Source of the DNA: Acidimicrobiia bacterium UBA1281
GTDB lineage: Bacteria > Actinomycetota > Acidimicrobiia > Actinomarinales > Actinomarinaceae
NCBI GenBank assembly: GCA_002308095.1
Contig: DBUV01000080.1
Location: forward strand, 12,586 to 38,566
DNA length: 25,981 bases
Direction of reading: 5' to 3'
The notes under the pieces: generated by a model
Told to the model about the DNA's origin: nothing
Databases searched by the model: none
The model's input: the letters and a program-made list of their open reading frames with translations, nothing else
In this document: piece after piece, positions 3,282 to 19,735 of the stretch
How the letters are laid out: every line of letters starts with the position of its first letter
Numbering within the stretch: position 1 is the stretch's first letter
Made by a program: the position numbers and the translations under genes

Positions 3282-4943
3282 TTATCCTGTCACGGCCCCT
3301 TTATCAGCTCCCTGCACTAGCTTTGAATATTTACTAAGAACGCCGGATGCATACCTTGGTTTTGGGAGTTTATAATTCTTTTTCCTTAATTTTTTTTCTT
3401 CTTCGTCTATATTAAGATTTAATTCTCTCTTCGAAAGATTCAACTCTATTTCATCTCCATCGTGACAAAGTGAAATTGGTCCACCATCTACACTTTCGGG
3501 GGCCACATGTCCTATACATAAGCCTGTAGTCCCACCAGAAAATCTACCATCTGTAATTAATAAAACATCTTTCCCTAAACCTGCTCCTTTTATTGCAGCA
3601 GTTATCTGTAACATTTCTCTCATACCTGGACCTCCTTTGGGTCCTTCATTACGAATTACAACTACTTGACCTTTTTGAATCTGATTATCAAATAACGCTT
3701 CTAGTGCATCTTGTTCGCTTTCAAACACATTTGCTGGTCCTTTAAAGGTGTCTATTTCAATTCCCGCTACTTTGACTACAGAGCCTTTTGGAGATAAAGA
3801 TCCATTTAATATAGCTATACCTCCTTCTTTTGAAATTGGGTTATCAGGAAAAGAAACTACATTTTGATTTGATGGTACTTCAATATTTTCTAGGTTTTCG
3901 CCAACTGTTTTACCTGTGACTGTTAGACAATTTCCATCAATTAAATTATTTTCTAGGAGTATCTTTGAAACGACAGGAACTCCACCAATATTGTTCAAAT
4001 CAACCATATGGTATTTTCCAAAAGGTTTCATATCTGCAATATGTGGAACTGTTTTACCTAGTTGATCAAAAGTATCTAAAGTTAAATCAACTTGAGCCTC
4101 ATAGGCAATAGCCATTAAATGTAGAACCGCATTAGTACTTCCCCCTAAAGCTAAAACAGTTGTTACTGCATTTTTAAATGCCTGCAGAGTCATTATGTCT
4201 CTTGGCTTAATGTCATTTTTAAGCAGATAATTTAATTGCTTTCCTGTTCTTTCAGCTTCAACTCTTAACTTTGAGTCTTCTGCTGGTAAAGCTGCTGTTC
4301 CTGGCAAACTCATTCCTATCGCTTCCCCTACAGATGCCATAGTGTTAGCTGTAAACATGCCTGCACATGAACCTTGCCCTGGGCATGCTGCGCACTCTAT
4401 TTCATACAATTCTTCTTCAGAAATTAAACCTTTTTCCATAGCTCCAATACCTTCAAAGACGTCGACTATAGAAATATCCTTGCCTTTATATGTTCCGGGA
4501 AGACTACTGCCGCCATATAAAAAGATTGAAGGTCTGTTTATTCTTGCTGCAGCCATGAGCATTCCTGGAAGGGACTTGTCACAACCTGCAATAGTTACCA
4601 TTCCATCAAACCTCTCTGCATGCATAACTAGCTCAACTGAGTCTGCGATAACTTCACGAGAGACTAAAGATGCCCTCATTCCTTCGTGACCCATTGAAAT
4701 GCCGTCAGATACAGCAATAGTGGAGAATATTAACCCAGCAGATTCTGGACCATTTACACCACTCTTTGCTTTTAAGGAGAGTTCAGGTCCAGTTACATTA
4801 CATGGAGTTACTTCATTTCCAGCAGAAACAATTCCGACTTGAAACTTGTTAAAGTCTTCATCTTTGAGCCCTACAGCTCTTAACATAGCTCTAGCAGCAG
4901 ATCTACCAGGGCCTTGAGTTACATCATCAGAATATTTAACCAT
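3282..4943 (-). CDS. ilvD: Dihydroxy-acid dehydratase IlvD
   Basis: Dehydrates 2,3-dihydroxy-isovalerate and 2,3-dihydroxy-3-methylvalerate to the 2-oxo acids, the last common step before transamination to valine and isoleucine and the source of the leucine precursor. At 553 residues it is full length. The three cluster cysteines are visible: Cys48 in EVTPCN, Cys121 in GCDKSLPG and Cys193 in [11 protein letters not shown]. Lys123, next to the second Cys, is the residue carbamylated in the family. The C-terminal half contains GGSTNAVLH and GRFSGGT. It starts at ATG 4943, 31 bases after queG, and is transcribed away from ilvBNC-leuAB although it serves the same pathway, so it is probably not under the ilvB attenuator. 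Identification is secure. Confidence 0.97.
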
Positions 4944-4974: not shown

Positions 4975-6060
4975 TCATTTCATAAGTCTTAGATATTCAT
5001 CTTTAACCAATTCACTTTTTTCAAAACTTACATCATAGTGTTGCGGTAAATCACCAAGCCTTTGAAGCTTCCATATTGCCCATATTGAATAAAAACGTAT
5101 AATCTCGGATTCAGACTTTAAAAGTGTAAATATAAAATCCACAGCTGACCTATCTGGATTGTTTGCGAGTGCAATTAAAGCGTTCCTTTTTAGATAATCA
5201 CCATTTCTTTTAGGAATATAGAACCATGAGTATGAATTTATCAATTCATCATTCGACATCTTTATTATTCTTTTTAAATCTACCTTACTAGTTAAATCAA
5301 TATTAAAGTCCTTGGTTTGTCCTGGTGGGCATGAAGTTAGACATTCATCACAACCATAAAATCTATTTCCAATATATGACCTCATATCATGAGGTATTAT
5401 TTCAGGAGATTGTAACCAATATGAAATACACTTATTTGAATCAAGAGTATATTCTTCATCAAGAGCTCCTGTAGGGCAAGAGATTTGGCATAAATTACAT
5501 GATCCACAAGAGAACTTTTTTTGGTCACTTGAGTCAAAGCTTTCCGAAACATATAAGTTTCCGATTAATTGCCATGGACCTATTCCAGGTGAAAGCATCA
5601 TTGTACTTTTACCTTGCCATCCTAAACCTGAAGTATTAAAAAATATTCGATCATAATGTTGAGGACTGTCAATAAATTCATGGGTTTGAATGTGCTTGTT
5701 ATCAAATAGCTCAATAAGATTATTCATGAATCTTTTAAGTGGTTTATAGTGATCTTCAGCTGCAAAAAGCGCAATTGCACCCTCTCCTGGTGCAAAAGAG
5801 TGATTATTAACTGATTTAGGTATGTAGTTGTAAGAAATTACGATGCAGCTCTTAGCCCATTCAAATTTGTCTCCTAATCCTGAATATTCTGGATCTGAAA
5901 AAGTAAATTTCATATTGGCGTGTTTGTTCTCATTCTTAGATTTTTTAATTTCTGTAGTTTTACTTATCAGAGAAGGGAGCGAAACAATAGATATATTTAT
6001 ATTTTCAGGTACCTCTACTTTGTGAATTTTTAGATAATTAAATAGGTTTTTTTCTTTCAT
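4975..6060 (-). CDS. queG: Epoxyqueuosine reductase QueG
   Basis: Cobalamin- and iron-sulfur-dependent reductase for the last step of queuosine synthesis in tRNA. With the start at ATG 6060 it is 361 residues. The catalytic Asp is Asp131 in EFIDSPQ, and GLGWQGKST (145-153) matches the conserved cobalamin-domain loop. Two ferredoxin-type clusters follow: Cys185, 188, 191, 195 (CGSCNLCQISCP), then Cys211 with Cys237, 240, 244 (GCDECLTSCPPG). The C-terminal 60-70 residues look like a short HEAT-type helical repeat, as in QueG. An ATG four codons upstream at 6072 is possible, but the divergent -10-like palindrome at 6073-6084 would place the transcript start near 6068, which favours 6060. The usual RYArGxDYH stretch is altered (AAEDHYKPLKR). 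It appears to head the minus-strand unit. Confidence 0.92.
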   Translation of the reverse strand: MKEKNLFNYLKIHKVEVPENINISIVSLPSLISKTTEIKKSKNENKHANMKFTFSDPEYSGLGDKFEWAKSCIVISYNYIPKSVNNHSFAPGEGAIALFAAEDHYKPLKRFMNNLIELFDNKHIQTHEFIDSPQHYDRIFFNTSGLGWQGKSTMMLSPGIGPWQLIGNLYVSESFDSSDQKKFSCGSCNLCQISCPTGALDEEYTLDSNKCISYWLQSPEIIPHDMRSYIGNRFYGCDECLTSCPPGQTKDFNIDLTSKVDLKRIIKMSNDELINSYSWFYIPKRNGDYLKRNALIALANNPDRSAVDFIFTLLKSESEIIRFYSIWAIWKLQRLGDLPQHYDVSFEKSELVKDEYLRLMK

Positions 6061-6072
6061 TTTTATCAGCAT

Positions 6073-6084
6073 TAACTATAGTTA
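6073..6084. promoter_or_regulatory. Symmetric -10-like palindrome between divergent operons
   Basis: TAACTATAGTTA is a perfect 12-base inverted repeat located between queG (minus) and the ilvB leader (plus). Each strand reads TATAGT, a good -10 hexamer: 6077-6082 on plus and 6080-6075 on minus. A plus start about 7 bases downstream would fall near 6089-6090, directly before the leader-peptide ATG at 6091, giving an almost leaderless transcript. A minus start would fall near 6068, just ahead of the queG ATG at 6060. No convincing -35 box is present on either side. The hexamer match is seen; promoter function is inferred. Confidence 0.45.
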
Positions 6085-6090
6085 TGTTTA

Positions 6091-6141
6091 ATGAAAAAAC
6101 TATCTATCTCAATTACATTATTAGTGCTAGTGCTTATGTAG
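6091..6141 (+). CDS. ilvB operon leader peptide (16 residues)
   Basis: A short reading frame, MKKLSISITLLVLVLM and a TAG stop, sits 62 bases ahead of ilvB. Nine of its 16 codons specify branched-chain amino acids: Leu five times, Ile twice, Val twice, with the run LLVLVL near the end. This is the hallmark of a ribosome-mediated attenuation leader for branched-chain amino acid genes, known upstream of ilv operons in enterobacteria and corynebacteria. The stop codon abuts the first of the hairpins that lead into the terminator at 6165-6193. No Shine-Dalgarno motif is visible, and the likely -10 lies so close that the message may start almost at the ATG. Uncharged Leu, Val or Ile tRNA should stall the ribosome here and allow read-through into ilvB. 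Confidence 0.82.
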   Translation: MKKLSISITLLVLVLM

Positions 6142-6165
6142 CGCTCACTATTTTGTGTTGAGCGC
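6129..6165 (+). promoter_or_regulatory. Alternative hairpins of the ilvB attenuator
   Basis: AGTGCT (6129-6134, itself the second copy of a tandem AGTGCTAGTGCT covering the Leu/Val codons) can pair with AGCGCT (6140-6145) around a 5-base loop. The same downstream arm, as GCGCTCA (6141-6147), pairs perfectly over 7 bases with TGAGCGC (6159-6165) around an 11-base loop. The two hairpins exclude each other, as regions 1:2 and 2:3 of a classical attenuator do. The second shares only its last one or two bases with the terminator arm, so the exact antitermination geometry is unresolved. Confidence 0.6.
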
Positions 6166-6193
6166 CTCCCAAAAAAAAGGGGGGTTTTTTTTT
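6165..6193 (+). terminator. Intrinsic terminator (attenuator) upstream of ilvB
   Basis: CCTCCC (6165-6170) pairs with GGGGGG (6179-6184), with one G-U pair and an A8 loop, and is followed directly by nine T residues (6185-6193). It stands between the leader-peptide stop and the ilvB ribosome binding site, the position of an attenuator rather than of a gene-end terminator. The A8 loop could alternatively pair with the T run, with TCC (6167-6169) pairing GGA (6196-6198). That would hide the ilvB Shine-Dalgarno, so a translational effect is also conceivable. Confidence 0.78.
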
Positions 6194-6198
6194 AAGGA
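6194..6198 (+). promoter_or_regulatory. ilvB Shine-Dalgarno site
   Basis: AAGGA lies 4 bases before the ATG at 6203 and directly follows the T run of the attenuator. It supports the start at 6203, although the ATG at 6215 is also within reach. It marks an in-frame upstream GTG (6155) as an artefact because that codon lies inside the attenuator. Confidence 0.6.
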
Positions 6199-6202
6199 TA
6201 CT

Positions 6203-7915
6203 ATGGAAGATAAAATGTTAACAGGCGCAGAGTTGGTCATAAGAGGACTAGAGCATCTTAAAGTCTCTACAATCTTCGGTGTTCCAGGTGGTGCGATATT
6301 ACCAGCTTATGACCCGCTATATGACAGCCCTATAAGACATATTTTAGCAAGGCACGAACAGGGTTCAGGACATATGGCAGAGGGATATGCTCAAGCAACA
6401 GGTGAATTGGGTGTAGTTATAGCAACCTCCGGTCCTGGGGCAACGAATTTAATAACATCTTTAAACAACGCGTTAATGGACTCCACTCCACTTTTAGCAA
6501 TTACTGGACAAGTAGCAAGTGAGGCTATTGGTAATGACGCATTCCAAGAAGCATACACAGTTGGTTTAACCATGGCAGCAACTAAACATAATTACTTGAT
6601 TACCAAAGCAAGCGAAATTCCTCAAGTATTACTTGAAGCAAAGCATATAGCAACAACTGGAAGACCAGGTCCTGTGCTTGTAGATATTCCAAAAGATATT
6701 CTTAATGAAAAAGCTAAATGGATAGAGCCTAAATTGTTAGATTTACCAGGTTACAAACCTACTCTTGAAGCAAATCCTAAAATGATTCAACAGGCTGTAA
6801 ATCTTATAACAGATTCAAAAAAACCCCTTCTTTATGTTGGAGGAGGAATTATCCACTCAAAGGCAAACGTAGAATTATATGATCTTGCCAAAAAATACAA
6901 TATACCAGTAGTAACAACTCTTATGGGTAGAGGAGCATTTCCAGATGGAGATGAACTGTGTTTAGGGATGCCAGGAATGCACGGAAACTATACTGCTACA
7001 ACTTCTATTCAAAATTCAGATTTACTTATTGCGATTGGAGTTCGTTTTGACGATCGTGTTACAGCAAATCCTAAATTTTTTGCGCAGAATGCAAAAGTCA
7101 TCCATGCAGATATAGATCCGGCCGAAATTGGAAAAGTAAGAGAAGCTGAAGTACCAATAGTTGGAGATGCTAAGAGTGTAATTAAAGGTATTATCGAAAA
7201 ACTTGGAGATGTTGAATTGCAAACTTCTGATTGGATTCAAGAGATTAACAACATGAAAGAAAACTACCCGTTGAATTATAAACAGGAAGATAAAGGTCCT
7301 CTTAAGGTCCCCTACGTTCTTGAAGAACTCCAAAAAATGTCCGAGGAGGATTCAATTGTTGTATCCGGAGTTGGGCAACATCAGATGTGGATATCACTTC
7401 ACTGGAAATTTACAAAGCCTAACACTTGGTTGAATTCAGGAGGATTAGGAACAATGGGTTACTCTTTACCCGCTGCAATTGGTGCAAAAGCTGCATTTCC
7501 AGATAAACAAGTTCTTGCGCTCGATGGTGACGGCTGTTTCCAAATGACTTGCCAGGAACTTATAACTGCCTCAACTGAAAATATTCCTCTTAAGATAGTC
7601 GTATTTAATAATGGTAATCACGGAATGGTAAGACAGTGGCAAAAAATATTTTACAATAATAGATTTTCTGCTTCAGAACTAACACATCACACACCAGATT
7701 ACGTAAAGCTTGCTGAAGCAATGGGTGCAGTGGGTCTAAGAATGGAACAAAAATCTGAAGTTAAAGATGTATTTGAGAAAATGTTAGAAATAAATGATAA
7801 ACCAGTGCTTGTAGACTGTGTTGTTGATCCAGACGATATGGTATTTCCTATGGTGCCTGCCGGTGGTAGTAATGACGTAATTATTTTAAATGAAGAGGAT
7901 TTAAAAGAACTATGA
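6203..7915 (+). CDS. ilvB: Acetolactate synthase large (catalytic) subunit IlvB
   Basis: ThDP-, FAD- and Mg-dependent acetohydroxyacid synthase. It condenses two pyruvates to acetolactate (valine/leucine) or pyruvate with 2-oxobutyrate (isoleucine). From ATG 6203 it is 570 residues, normal for the family. The catalytic Glu52 lies in RHEQGSGHMAEGYA, the FAD-binding middle domain includes GVRFDDRVT, and the ThDP motif begins at about residue 441 with GDGCFQMTCQEL and ends at NNGNHGMV. An open frame reaches back to GTG 6155, but that would translate the terminator into a meaningless KKGGFFF segment. The stop overlaps the ilvN start (ATGA). Regulation is by the upstream leader peptide and terminator. 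Confidence 0.97.
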   Translation: MEDKMLTGAELVIRGLEHLKVSTIFGVPGGAILPAYDPLYDSPIRHILARHEQGSGHMAEGYAQATGELGVVIATSGPGATNLITSLNNALMDSTPLLAITGQVASEAIGNDAFQEAYTVGLTMAATKHNYLITKASEIPQVLLEAKHIATTGRPGPVLVDIPKDILNEKAKWIEPKLLDLPGYKPTLEANPKMIQQAVNLITDSKKPLLYVGGGIIHSKANVELYDLAKKYNIPVVTTLMGRGAFPDGDELCLGMPGMHGNYTATTSIQNSDLLIAIGVRFDDRVTANPKFFAQNAKVIHADIDPAEIGKVREAEVPIVGDAKSVIKGIIEKLGDVELQTSDWIQEINNMKENYPLNYKQEDKGPLKVPYVLEELQKMSEEDSIVVSGVGQHQMWISLHWKFTKPNTWLNSGGLGTMGYSLPAAIGAKAAFPDKQVLALDGDGCFQMTCQELITASTENIPLKIVVFNNGNHGMVRQWQKIFYNNRFSASELTHHTPDYVKLAEAMGAVGLRMEQKSEVKDVFEKMLEINDKPVLVDCVVDPDDMVFPMVPAGGSNDVIILNEEDLKEL

Positions 7916-8385
7916 GTGAAAGAATCCTTAGTGTGCTGGTTGAAGACAAGCCTGGTGTATTGGCTAGAATATCATCTACGATATCAAGAAGAGGCTTCAA
8001 TATTAATTCACTTTCTGTTGGACCTACAAACATTGAAGGTAGATCTAAAATGACAATAGTTACTGAACTTGAATCTGTAGAACAAGTTAAAAAACAATTA
8101 AATAAACTTATAAATGTAATAAAAATAGTTGAACTCGATCCCGACAATACTATTGAATCAGAAGTTTTATTGATGAAAGTTTCAATCAACAAAGATTCTC
8201 AAACATCTGTTATTGAAAAAGCAAATTTATCTGGAGCAAAATCTGTTGATGTTGGACAAGACTATGCAGTTTTCGAACTGACTGGGACATCTAAAGAGTT
8301 AAAAAAATTTGAAAACCTCTTAAAGCCTTATGGAATTATAGAAATGATACGTGGTGGCAGAATAGCTATCCAATCTAATTTGTAA
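7912..8385 (+). CDS. ilvN: Acetolactate synthase regulatory (small) subunit IlvN/IlvH
   Basis: Regulatory partner of IlvB that raises its activity and confers valine feedback inhibition. It has 157 residues, as usual. An N-terminal ACT domain (about 4-75) begins ILSVLVEDKPGVLARI, followed by RRGFNINSLSVGPT; the C-terminal domain (about 84-157) ends in a typical MIRGGRIAIQS. By comparison with E. coli IlvH, the valine-site positions are Asp12 (Asn there), Gly15 and Asn30, so the allosteric pocket appears kept. Its ATG overlaps the ilvB stop, consistent with coupled translation and a matched subunit ratio. Confidence 0.95.
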   Translation: MSERILSVLVEDKPGVLARISSTISRRGFNINSLSVGPTNIEGRSKMTIVTELESVEQVKKQLNKLINVIKIVELDPDNTIESEVLLMKVSINKDSQTSVIEKANLSGAKSVDVGQDYAVFELTGTSKELKKFENLLKPYGIIEMIRGGRIAIQSNL

Positions 8386-8399: not shown

Positions 8400-9416
8400 A
8401 TGGAAACAAAAATTATTTATGATGACCAAATTAATGGAGACTTGATAAAAGAAAAAAAAGTAGCTGTTATTGGTTTTGGGAGTCAGGGTCATGCTCACGC
8501 ACTTAATCTCCATGAATCAGGAGTTGACGTAACTGTTGGTTTGAGGGAAACATCTGAAACTTTTTCTCGAGCAAAAGAAATGGGTCTCAAGGTTGCTTCC
8601 GTAGAAGATGCTGTATCAAATTCTGAAGTTGTAATGCTCTTGCTCCCCGACCAATTGATGGCTGATGTGTATAACGAAACTATTGCTCCATTAATGACTG
8701 AAAATTCTACTTTATTATTTGCACACGGTTTCAATATTCATTTTAATGAAATTAAACCTAGGGAAGATATCTCTATTGCAATGGTTGCTCCAAAAGGGCC
8801 GGGTCACTTACTAAGAAGAACCTACGAAGAGGGTTCTGGTATGCCGTGCTTAGTTGCTGTTGAGAGTGATACAAATGGAAACACACACGAACTAGCACTT
8901 TCATACGCATCTGCTATTGGTGGAGGTAGAGCCGGAGTATTAAACACTACATTTAAAGAAGAGACTGAAACTGATTTATTTGGAGAACAGGTTGTTCTTT
9001 GTGGGGGTTTAACTGAGTTGATCAAGAATGGCTTTGAAACTCTCGTTGAAGCAGGATATCAACCTGAAAGTGCCTATTTCGAAACACTACATGAAGTTAA
9101 ATTAATTGTTGACCTTATGTATGAGGGTGGTTTTGAATGGATGAGACACTCTATTTCTGACACCGCCGAATATGGAGACTTTTCAAGGGGTCCAAGAATT
9201 GTAAATGAAGACACAAAGAAAGAAATGAAGAAAGTATTAGAAGAAATTCAATCTGGATCGTTTGCTAAAGAATTTATGGCACAGTCGAGAGAGGGTTCAC
9301 CATTTTTGAATCAAAAAAGAGAGGAAGCCTCAAAGCATCAAATTGAAGAAGTAGGCAAAGAGCTTCGATCAATGATGCCCTTCCTGAGTGCAAAGGATAT
9401 CAAAAAAGACAAATGA
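8400..9416 (+). CDS. ilvC: Ketol-acid reductoisomerase IlvC (class I)
   Basis: Mg- and NAD(P)H-dependent enzyme that rearranges and reduces acetolactate or acetohydroxybutyrate to the dihydroxy acids used by IlvD. At 338 residues it is the short class I form. The Rossmann nucleotide site is GFGSQGHA (25-32) with the following strand and loop [11 protein letters not shown]. Catalytic and metal residues are His109, Lys132 in PKGPGH, Asp192 and Glu196 in TDLFGEQ, and Glu228 and Glu232 in the knotted C-terminal domain. It has its own strong Shine-Dalgarno in the 14-base gap after ilvN, and its stop overlaps the leuA ATG. Confidence 0.97.
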
Positions 9417-10903
9417 GCGATGACCAACTAATCATTTTTGATACGACCTTAAGGGATGGAGAGCAAAGCCCTGGAATAGCATTAACTCCATCTGAAAAAC
9501 TTTTAATAGCACAACAATTAGAGAAGTTAAAAGTAGATGTTATAGAAGCCGGCTTCGCAGCTTCATCTCCAGGAGACTGGGAGGGTGTAAATTTAATTGC
9601 AAAAAATATACATAACTCAACTATTGCGTCACTAGCAAGATGTGTTCCAGATGACATTGAGAGAGCATGGGAAGCAATAAAAGTGGCAAGAAAATCAAGA
9701 ATTCATGTATTTACTTCTACTTCAGACATCCACATGGAACACATGTTAAGAAAAACTAAAGAAGAGGTTCTTCACGATGCAAAAGAATCAGTAAGATACG
9801 CAAAAAAATTATGTGATGATATTGAATTCTCTGCTCAAGATGCGACAAGAACAGATAAAGATTTCCTTATAGAAATTCTTAAAGTAGCTGTTCAGGAGGG
9901 TGCTACTACAATCAATGTTCCCGATACTGTGGGTTACGCAACTCCTTCAGATTATTTAGAGCTACTTAAAGGAGTGTACGATGAAGTTAAAGGGAAAAAT
10001 GATGATATCGTCATTTCAACTCATTGCCATAATGATCTAGGTCTTGCGGTAGCTAATTCATTAACAGCAATAAAAGCAGGCGCTAGGCAAATAGAAGGCG
10101 CTATAAATGGAATCGGTGAAAGAGCTGGTAACACGTCTACAGAAGAAATAATTATGGCAGTTAAGACTAGACAAGATCAGTACGGTGTAGATATAAATGC
10201 TGAAACTACTGAGATTTTAGAAACTTCTAGGTTGGTCTCTAAATTGACTGGCTACCCAGTTCAGTACAATAAGGCCGTTGTAGGTAAAAATGCATTTAGT
10301 CATGAATCAGGTATTCATCAACATGGCTATTTAAGAAATAGTATGACCTACGAAATAATGACACCAGATTCTGTAGGCCAGGAAGCTAAAATTATTCTTG
10401 GAAAACACTCCGGAAGAGCAGGGTTCAAAGATGCATTAGACAAATTGAATATTGTTCTTGATGAGGAATCATTTAATTCGAGTTTTGATACGTTTAAAAA
10501 ACTTGCAGATAGAAAAGGTGAAATTGTTGAGAATGAACTTCGTGCAATTGTAGGTCAAGTTGAAACATCTTCATCAGAAGTTAAACTTTTATCTGTATCT
10601 GTAAACAGTAAAGATCAGTATGCCTCAGCAAGTGTTACTCTAAGTGTTCAAGGAAAAGAATTAACAGAGGAAGCTGAAGGTGATGGAATGATACATGCAG
10701 CATTCACAGCAGTAAAGAAAATCTTACAGACGGATGCAACTCTTATTGACTATAGGGTTGAAAGCATTACTAAAGGTGCTGATGCAACAGCAGAAATAGT
10801 AACAATTATTAATGATGGACATAACTTAAAACAAGGAAGAGCAGTATCAACAGATGTTGTACAAGGTTCAGTAGAATCTTTTCTGAATGCTCTTAATAGA
10901 TAA
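9413..10903 (+). CDS. leuA: 2-Isopropylmalate synthase LeuA
   Basis: Condenses acetyl-CoA with 2-oxoisovalerate, the first committed step of leucine synthesis. It has 496 residues. The DRE-TIM barrel starts with [13 protein letters not shown], carrying the catalytic Arg14 and metal-binding Asp15. The HxH metal motif is His204 and His206 in STHCHNDLG, and GERAGNTS contains Asn240. The C-terminal LeuA allosteric domain (about 370-496) ends with [13 protein letters not shown], which separates it from citramalate synthases of similar barrel sequence and suggests leucine feedback. The length is that of the ~500-residue bacterial LeuA rather than the longer ~600-residue form of mycobacteria. It starts within the ilvC stop (ATGA) and its stop overlaps the leuB start (TAATG). 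Confidence 0.94.
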
Positions 10904-11961
10904 TGAAAAATTATAACATTTCACTATTGGCCGGAGATGGGACAGGACCAGAGGTCGTAACTGAAGCTGTAAAAATACTTGAACAAACTCAATCATCTTA
11001 TGATGTAAATTTTACTTTTACTGAAAATGATTTAGGTGGTGAACGATTTTTAAAATCTCAGGAACTAGTTACAACAAAAGATATAGATGAACTTGGAAGT
11101 AGTGATTCAATCCTTCTAGGTGCTATAGGTCATCCAGATGTAAAACCAGGAATACTTGAGCAAGGGATACTACTTAAATTAAGAAAAGAATTTGATCAAT
11201 ATATAAATCTTCGTCCTGTAGTTCTATATCCAGGTGTAGAGACTCCCCTAGCTAATAAAGCACCTGAAGATATTAACTTTACAGTAGTAAGAGAAAATAC
11301 AGAAGGACTTTATGCGGGAGCTGGTGGATATATTCACTATGGGACAGAGAGTGAAGTAGCTACACAAGAATCAATTAACACTTATAAGGCAATCCACAGA
11401 TGTATTTTATATGCTTTTGAATATGCCAAAAAAAATAATAGAAAAAAGATTACCCTTTGTGCAAAAACAAATGTGTTAACTTATGCACATGATTTATGGG
11501 AAAGAATATTTTATGATGTAGCTAAAGATTATCCAGAGATTGAAACTGACTATGGACATGTTGATGCTGTTTGTATGTGGATGGTTAAAAATCCAGAATG
11601 GTTTGACGTAATAGTTACAGACAATATGTTTGGTGATATCATCACTGATTTAGGAGCCATGATTCAAGGAGGTATGGGAATCGCAGCAGGAGGTAATATT
11701 AACCCAAACGGAGTGTCTATGTTTGAACCCATAGGTGGGTCTGCTCCAAAATATACGGGAATGAATGTTATAAATCCCCTAGCCTGTATAGCAGCTGCAT
11801 CAATGATGCTCACTCAATTAGGTGAAACTGATTATGGCAGAGATATCGAGAATGCAATAATTGAAACTGCTCAAAAACTAGATTCACTTTCTGCAGGAAA
11901 AATGGGTCTCTCAACAAGCGAAGTTGGGGATGCTGTACTGGAATCTATTAAATCAAAGTAG
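10903..11961 (+). CDS. leuB: 3-Isopropylmalate dehydrogenase LeuB
   Basis: NAD-dependent oxidative decarboxylase for 3-isopropylmalate in leucine synthesis. It has 352 residues. Substrate arginines Arg94, Arg104 and Arg130, catalytic Lys188 (CAKTNVL) and metal-binding Asp221, Asp245 and Asp249 are all present. [19 protein letters not shown] is close to the actinobacterial LeuB pattern. The [10 protein letters not shown] segment also occurs in the wider isocitrate/homoisocitrate/tartrate dehydrogenase family, so sequence alone leaves some ambiguity. Its position directly after leuA settles it as LeuB. leuC and leuD, which must act between LeuA and LeuB, are not in the window. Confidence 0.93.
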
Positions 11962-19386: not shown

Positions 19387-19735
19387 AGGTAAAGTTAGTT
19401 TGAGATGGATAATCGCGATTTATCGAGGAAAGTCCGGACACTATAGAGCAGAGAGCTGGGTAACTCCCAGGCAAGTAATTGACGGAAAGTGCAACAGAAA
19501 ATAAACCGCTTATCAAGGTAAGTAAGGGTGAAAAGGTGGTGTAAGAGACTACCAGTAATTTAAGTGATTAAATTAGCTTGTAAACCCCTCTCAGTGCAAT
19601 ATCAAGAAGCAATTAGCTTGCTCGGCTTTTAATTGCGGGTAGATAGCTAGATGTATTTGGTAACAAATACACAAGATGGATGATTATCTTACATTAATTT
19701 GTAAACAGAATCCGGCTTATAGTCTCATAAGACCT
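19387..19735 (+). ncRNA. rnpB: RNase P RNA (class A)
   Basis: Catalytic RNA that trims tRNA 5' leaders. The universally conserved blocks are present in order: GAGGAAAGTCCGGAC (19425-19439, P4 and CR-I), GGGTGAAAAGGTGG with GTAAGAG and CTACCAG (19526-19555, CR-II/III and P10/11), AAACCCC (19582-19588), and ACAGAATCCGGCTTAT (19705-19720, CR-V and the second half of P4). A perfect 7-bp hairpin with a GTAA loop (19653-19670) fits P18. The ends are set from P1, where TGAGAT near 19401 pairs with GTCTCA near 19722 and AGGT (19387) may pair with ACCT (19732-19735). The true ends may differ by about 10 bases. The length of about 350 is typical. Confidence 0.95.

What the first reader, a model, noticed from the sequence alone, without database searches (positions are those of the whole stretch)
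6091..6202. Leu/Val/Ile-rich leader peptide plus terminator: attenuator of the ilvBNC-leuAB operon
The 16-residue frame MKKLSISITLLVLVLM has nine branched-chain codons. It is followed by mutually exclusive hairpins and a C/G stem with nine Ts, all within 112 bases of the ilvB start. This explains how a single signal could control six plus-strand genes. The arrangement differs from textbook cases: the 2:3 hairpin shares only one or two bases with the terminator stem, and the A8/T9 tracts could form a second structure hiding the AAGGA ribosome site. The switching mechanism may therefore be new or partly translational.
Basis: partly seen in the sequence, partly recalled or inferred. Interest (0 to 1): 0.78.

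Follow-up and report, generated by a model that had tools for sequence, protein, structure and literature searches.

The report
Marine actinobacterial branched-chain amino acid attenuator
A tiny leucine- and valine-rich peptide gene in front of a marine actinobacterium's branched-chain amino acid operon very probably lets a ribosome decide whether transcription stops early; the general kind is known, but its two RNA hairpins barely overlap, so how the switch works is open.

Summary
The window belongs to a Candidatus Actinomarina-like marine actinobacterium. Before ilvB lie a 16-codon frame (MKKLSISITLLVLVLM), a hairpin (P2) that starts at the last base of its TAG stop, and a strong intrinsic terminator. 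A signature of P2 plus terminator arm occurs once in 33 of 42 genomes of the genus. The full anatomy is found in 32 of 32 Actinomarina loci and 92 of 100 class-level ilvB loci, against 0 of 96 and 0 of 300 shuffles. It is a branched-chain amino acid leader-peptide attenuator, a kind already reported before ilvB in other Actinobacteria (PMC1262725, PMC10272879). Conserved spacing to the -10 box suggests a leaderless frame. In E. coli thr, leu, trp and his leaders a stalled ribosome leaves 81-100% of the terminator's 5' arm sequestered at the main stall codons; in Actinomarina the median is 26%. The A8/T9 idea is not supported. Most likely P2 forms when the ribosome stalls on Leu/Val codons and weakens the terminator's base; that last step is inferred.

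The parts
6074..6083 (.). AACTATAGTT, palindromic box holding the -10 hexamer TATAGT (6077-6082) of the leader transcript; probably also serves the divergent queG side
   Evidence: ACTATAGT invariant in 26 of 26 aligned loci; 7 or 8 nt from TATAGT to the leader ATG in 26 of 26. Promoter function inferred.
6091..6141 (+). leader peptide frame MKKLSISITLLVLVLM, TAG stop; probably leaderless
   Evidence: 18 distinct peptides in 32 Actinomarina loci, 8-10 Leu/Val/Ile each; no GGAG/GAGG/AGGA 4-16 nt upstream in 32 of 32
6129..6145 (+). P1 (1:2) hairpin AGTGCT / AGCGCT, within the last Leu/Val codons and the stop; excludes P2
   Evidence: -6.2 kcal/mol; a longer-loop version 6123-6128/6140-6145 also pairs; no covariation test passed or failed
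6141..6165 (+). P2 (2:3) hairpin GCGCTCA / TGAGCGC, starting at the G of the TAG stop
   Evidence: -10.8 kcal/mol; stop-anchored P2 in 32 of 32 Actinomarina and 92 of 100 class loci, with compensatory changes across the class
6164..6185 (+). intrinsic terminator stem-loop (3:4)
   Evidence: -11.5 kcal/mol
6185..6193 (+). T9 tract of the terminator
   Evidence: at least 7 T columns invariant in 26 of 26
6194..6198 (+). AAGGA, probable ribosome site of ilvB
   Evidence: position only
6203..7915 (+). ilvB, acetolactate synthase large subunit
   Evidence: TIGR00118 759 bits, cutoff 538
7912..8385 (+). ilvN, acetolactate synthase small subunit
   Evidence: TIGR00119, above cutoff
8400..9416 (+). 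ilvC, ketol-acid reductoisomerase
   Evidence: TIGR00465, above cutoff
9413..10903 (+). leuA, 2-isopropylmalate synthase
   Evidence: TIGR00973, above cutoff
10903..11961 (+). leuB, 3-isopropylmalate dehydrogenase
   Evidence: NF002898, above cutoff

Best explanation
This is a ribosome-sensed transcription attenuator of ilvBNC-leuAB. RNA polymerase starts 0-2 nt before the ATG, so the leader frame is translated as a leaderless message. When Leu/Val/Ile-tRNAs are plentiful the ribosome reaches the TAG stop, whose 3' side is the 5' arm of P2; P2 cannot form, the terminator closes fully and transcription stops. When one of these tRNAs is short, the ribosome waits 4 or more codons before the stop, P2 folds, keeps the 2 nt at the base of the terminator and butts against it, and the terminator is left with 5 instead of 7 pairs (-6.2 instead of -11.5 kcal/mol), so polymerase reads into ilvB. 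Without translation, P1 can block P2 and the terminator wins. Shown: frame, P2, terminator, their order, spacing and conservation. Inferred: start site, translation, stalling, and that P2 is what reduces termination.
For: 32 of 32 Actinomarina and 92 of 100 class loci have peptide, stop-anchored P2 and terminator; shuffles 0 of 96 and 0 of 300. Leu/Val/Ile at codons -2, -3, -4, -5 before the stop in 92, 99, 98, 89% of 92 class loci, but 10% at -1; the filter asked only for 3 of 5 somewhere in the last 9 codons. Stop is TAG in 32 of 32 and 83 of 92, as expected if its G is a P2 base. P2 differs in sequence but pairs: 59 distinct arm pairs, up to six pair types at a position. With a footprint edge at A-site+12 (recalled value) P2's 5' arm is 99-100% covered at the stop, 0-3% at codons -4 and -5. 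Losing the 2 shared nt costs the terminator 5.3 kcal/mol. -10 to ATG is 7 or 8 nt in 26 of 26. The same logic is on in minimal and off in rich medium for the Corynebacterium ulcerans ilvB leader in B. subtilis (PMC10272879, section read).
Against: P2 sequesters little of the terminator: stalled-state occupancy of the terminator 5' arm has a median of 0.26 in 26 Actinomarina loci, against 0.81-1.00 at the main stall codons of E. coli thr, leu, trp and his. For this window the value at the stop (0.30) is no lower than when stalled (about 0.26), so this measure shows no switch. Codons -2 and -3 already cover 65% and 26% of the P2 arm, so not every Leu/Val stall should free P2. Within the genus 0 of 16 pairs show compensatory change. 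Terminators elsewhere in 29 class loci: 2 of 5 also had an abutting hairpin, so the abutment control is weak. PMC1262725 (passages) reports that codon substitutions in the S. coelicolor ilvB leader had no effect. No expression data.
Confidence: 0.62

Rival explanations
1. Textbook attenuator: P2 (or another antiterminator) base-pairs with the terminator's arms and excludes it by shared nucleotides alone.
For: In Actinomarina P2 and terminator share 1-2 nt (gap -1 in 26, -2 in 6 of 32), worth 5.3 kcal/mol in this window. 8 of 91 class loci reach 0.5 occupancy of the terminator arm.
Against: Class loci have gaps of 0-8 nt, none overlapping among 92. No other partner: duplexes of the terminator arms with the upstream leader are not better than with shuffled leader (mean z 0.32 and -0.02 in 92, 0.88 and 0.44 in 32).
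Confidence: 0.25
2. Corynebacterium-type switch: the terminator's 3' arm pairs with the loop of the upstream hairpin, as proposed for ilvB-II.
For: Proposed in PMC10272879 (section read). 31 of 84 class loops of 6 nt or more can pair with the terminator 3' arm at -8 kcal/mol or better.
Against: Not above shuffled loops: mean z 0.09 in 84 class loci and -0.13 in 32 Actinomarina loci; 0 of 32 Actinomarina loci reach -8 kcal/mol; 8 class loops are under 6 nt.
Confidence: 0.05
3. P2 is only a pause hairpin that couples ribosome and polymerase; the terminator is controlled by the ribosome's distance or by something else.
For: P2 stands where a pause hairpin would stop polymerase inside the terminator arm or loop (geometry, inference). 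Terminator and P2 can coexist in the class loci.
Against: With P2 formed, almost no spare RNA is left before the terminator (median -1 nt in Actinomarina, 3.5 in class) against 13 and 21.5 nt with the ribosome at the stop, which suggests a direct effect on the terminator.
Confidence: 0.15
4. Not attenuation: a constitutive short peptide frame and terminator, or a purely translational control of ilvB.
For: No transcript data; PMC1262725 (passages) calls the mode unclear in Actinobacteria.
Against: Codon positions, TAG bias and P2 anchoring are conserved; the terminator lies 17 nt before the ilvB start; A8/T9 is not conserved.
Confidence: 0.05

Closest known systems
Leader peptides with terminators upstream of ilvB in Corynebacterium, Mycobacterium and Streptomyces (PMC1262725, passages seen)
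   Same: Leu/Val/Ile-rich short frame and U-tailed terminator before ilvB in Actinobacteria; mode of regulation left open there
   Different: That paper as seen does not cover Actinomarina or the class sample. In several Streptomyces and Mycobacterium loci here the 5' arm of P2 lies in the frame, not at the stop codon
ilvB-II motif of Corynebacterium (PMC10272879, passages and sections 11, 12, 15 seen)
   Same: uORF of 15-17 codons rich in branched-chain codons, upstream hairpin followed by terminator, on in minimal and off in rich medium
   Different: Its proposed antiterminator pairs terminator 3' arm with the hairpin loop; this pairing is not above chance here
ilvB-OMG motif (mentioned in PMC10272879)
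   Same: ilvB-associated motif with a branched-chain-rich uORF
   Different: No Rfam family reached its cutoff here (E-value searches gave chance-level matches); I did not verify that ilvB-OMG is in the library
E. coli thr, leu, trp and his attenuators
   Same: Leader peptide, hairpin that competes with ribosome position, intrinsic terminator
   Different: Their stalled state sequesters 0.81-1.00 of the terminator 5' arm at the main stall codons; here median 0.26
Sinorhizobium meliloti trpL (PMC7298713, passages seen)
   Same: Leader frame whose ATG is at the transcript's 5' end
   Different: Different amino acid, phylum and RNA structure; leaderless status here is inferred from spacing only

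Membership tests
Leader-peptide transcription attenuator (branched-chain amino acids) | Short frame rich in codons of the operon's product, before the biosynthetic genes | tested here: met
Leader-peptide transcription attenuator (branched-chain amino acids) | Intrinsic terminator between frame and first gene | tested here: met
Leader-peptide transcription attenuator (branched-chain amino acids) | Hairpin whose folding depends on ribosome position | tested here: met
   Geometry only: footprint coverage; footprint length is a recalled value
Leader-peptide transcription attenuator (branched-chain amino acids) | Read-through rises on amino acid starvation | not testable with these tools
   no expression data
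Classical three-segment attenuator (E. coli trp type) | Antiterminator sequesters most of the terminator's 5' arm | tested here: not met
   median 0.26 (26 Actinomarina), 0.31 (91 class) versus 0.81-1.00 in four E. coli controls; two further controls, ilvL and ivbL, gave no terminator in my search
ilvB-II motif | Terminator 3' arm pairs with the loop of the upstream hairpin | tested here: not met
   not above shuffled loops
ilvB-OMG or any Rfam family | Score above the family's cutoff | tested here: not met
   window: only RNase P; six loci: none; presence of ilvB-OMG in the library not checked
Leaderless leader frame | Transcript starts at or within a few nt of the ATG | tested here: inconclusive
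   7 or 8 nt from TATAGT to ATG in 26 of 26; no start site mapped

The most novel reading that the evidence does not exclude
Actinobacterial ilvB leaders use an antiterminator that does not share its bases with the terminator but abuts it: a hairpin anchored at the leader stop codon removes the spare RNA next to the terminator, so that the terminator's base cannot close inside RNA polymerase. Mutual exclusion would be by space, not by base pairing; Actinomarina adds a 2-nt overlap.
Probability: 0.3. Interest if true: 0.72.

Novelty: new variant of a known kind. Interest (0 to 1): 0.47.

Why it matters
Candidatus Actinomarina is uncultured and streamlined, so a conserved amino acid switch is a rare handle on its regulation. 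More broadly, the class sample shows one strict geometry (four branched-chain codons at -5 to -2, TAG stop inside a hairpin, terminator 0-8 nt on) in which the usual explanation of attenuation, shared bases between antiterminator and terminator, fails or nearly fails. That turns the 'mode not clear' of PMC1262725 into a simple linker-length test.

Tried and rejected
A gammaproteobacterial (SAR86) origin was my first guess, from recall; one search showed Candidatus Actinomarina instead, and the SAR86 paper search returned nothing.

Equilibrium cost of forcing the terminator was 0.0 for all four E. coli controls that could be run, so it cannot show a switch; I replaced it with occupancy of the terminator 5' arm before the 3' arm is made. 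ilvL and ivbL gave no terminator in either script, so 2 of 6 controls were dropped.

A8/T9 structure: rejected because the loop is not conserved. Alternative partners of the terminator arms: none above shuffles. Covariation within the genus: none, 0 of 16 pairs, the sequences being too alike. Control of abutment on other terminators: too few, 2 of 5 abutting. Other Actinobacteria: of 69 loci 35 had no terminator by my criteria and 32 had peptide, hairpin and terminator; 22 of those had at least 7 bp and a gap of -4 to 4; no shuffle control was run on these. Literature: searches returned no papers; one search returned 35, of which 10 were listed and none looked relevant by title.

Class sample: of 100 loci, 8 failed the strict joint search (L030, L049, L120, L155, L167, L169, L196, L206); L030 and L155 show no element to my eye, several of the others parts of it. 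I counted L049 in the class although its title says only 'bacterium'. L125 was dropped as a copy of L028 but not.

Full report
What is there. The frame 6091-6141 encodes MKKLSISITLLVLVLM, with 9 Leu/Val/Ile of 16. Its TAG stop supplies the first base of hairpin P2 (6141-6147/6159-6165). The terminator stem is 6164-6170/6179-6185, followed by T9, and ilvB begins at 6203. Pfam and NCBIfam identify ilvB, ilvN, ilvC, leuA and leuB in tight order on the plus strand, and a QueG-like gene and ilvD on the minus strand (QueG scores 179 bits against a curated cutoff of 200). A QueG-like gene adjoins the element in 32 of 32 Actinomarina loci.

Where it comes from. A named contig, CACNFT010000001.1 (uncultured Candidatus Actinomarina sp.), encodes an ilvB 85% identical to the window's and carries a leader peptide identical to that of five other Actinomarina loci. 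NCBI places the genus in Actinomycetota; the assignment of its order to Acidimicrobiia follows GTDB as I recall it and fits the next named hits (L032-L035). Below, 'class' means what genome-search runs the same class plus named loci of that group.

Conservation. The pattern TAGCGCTC-N8-20-GAGCGCCTCC occurs exactly once in 33 of 42 genomes of the genus, and its reversed control in none. Eight of the nine genomes without it gave either no ilvB match or a match to a late part of ilvB only; for the ninth, G062, I know only that no match reached 1e-150. In an alignment of 26 loci the P2 arms and ACTATAGT are nearly or fully invariant, so within the genus there is no compensatory change (0 of 16 pairs). 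Covariation comes from the class: 92 of 100 loci have a branched-chain-rich frame, a hairpin starting within 4 nt of the stop and a terminator 0-8 nt further on, against 0 of 300 shuffles. Among the 92 there are 59 distinct P2 arm pairs, and most positions show several pair types, including G-C, C-G, A-T and T-A. Pairing was a selection criterion there; swapped arms pair at 46% of positions.

Geometry. Leu/Val/Ile occupy codons -2 to -5 before the stop in 89-99% of the 92 loci, and codon -1 in 10%. The stop is TAG in 83 of 92 class and 32 of 32 Actinomarina loci. Taking the ribosome's leading edge as 12 nt beyond the first A-site base (recalled), the P2 5' arm is covered completely at the stop, about two thirds at codon -2, a quarter at -3 and hardly at all at -4 and -5. 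Stalling at the first of the branched-chain codons thus frees P2, and reaching the stop abolishes it.

Leaderless frame. TATAGT ends 7 nt (7 loci) or 8 nt (19 loci) before the leader ATG in 26 of 26; no Shine-Dalgarno-like core was found upstream in 32 of 32. In the class, TANNNT at a spacing of 7 is found in 13 of 92 loci against about 0.9 expected (the start codon was chosen by rule). S. meliloti trpL is a precedent for an attenuator frame at the 5' end (PMC7298713, passages). No start site was measured.

Switch. In the four E. coli controls that my search could handle, a ribosome on the main stall codons leaves 0.81-1.00 of the terminator 5' arm paired before the 3' arm is made; at the stop this falls to 0.01-0.03 in thr, leu and trp but stays at 0.80 in his. 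In 26 Actinomarina loci the stalled maximum has a median of 0.26 (1 of 26 at 0.5 or more), in 91 class loci 0.31 (8 of 91), in 13 other actinobacterial loci 0.43 (5 of 13). For this window the value at the stop, 0.30, is not lower than when stalled. So sequestration of the arm is not the main device. In Actinomarina P2 and terminator share 1-2 nt; in this window those are worth 5.3 kcal/mol to the terminator (-11.5 to -6.2). In the class sample no base is shared (gap 0-8, median 3.5), and neither the upstream leader nor the P2 loop offers the terminator arms a partner better than shuffled sequence. What stays constant is the lack of spare RNA beside the terminator when P2 is formed: -1 nt (Actinomarina) or 3.5 nt (class) against 13 or 21.5 nt with the ribosome at the stop. 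I therefore propose that P2 acts on the base of the terminator by abutment, helped in Actinomarina by the 2-nt overlap. The evidence for abutment is geometric; the control on other terminators was too small and not favourable (2 of 5 abutting).

Known or new. Leader peptides with terminators before ilvB in Corynebacterium, Mycobacterium and Streptomyces were described in PMC1262725 (passages seen), which left the mode open and cites codon substitutions without effect in S. coelicolor. The Corynebacterium ilvB-II motif is on in minimal and off in rich medium in a B. subtilis reporter (PMC10272879, sections 11, 12 and 15 seen); one point mutation there had no effect. No Rfam family reached its cutoff in this region. 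My paper searches for this class or genus with attenuation or leader peptides showed nothing on it. I rate it a new variant of a known kind: the function is expected, the geometry and its spread across the class are the new part.

Noticed in passing
6074-6083: AACTATAGTT is a palindrome; its core ACTATAGT is invariant in 26 of 26 loci. It could serve as -10 box in both directions, for ilvB and for the divergent queG-ilvD side.
   Followed up: partly
4975-6072 (minus): The QueG-like frame listed from 6072 more likely starts at the ATG at 6060: the palindromic box lies 2 nt from 6072 but 14 nt from 6060. Reading of the sequence only.
   Followed up: no
19397-19735: Bacterial RNase P RNA, class A (Rfam RF00010, 267 bits).
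   Followed up: no
3282-4943 (minus): ilvD lies in the divergent queG-side cluster, so it is outside the reach of this attenuator although it belongs to the same pathway.
   Followed up: no
L043, L055, L058, L061, L063, L066, L075 and other non-class loci: In Streptomyces-type loci the 5' arm of the hairpin lies inside the leader frame (about 14 nt before the end of the stop codon) and the gap to the terminator is often 0.
   Followed up: partly
window, both strands: With the criteria the attenuator terminator at 6165 is the only intrinsic terminator found in the window.
   Followed up: no
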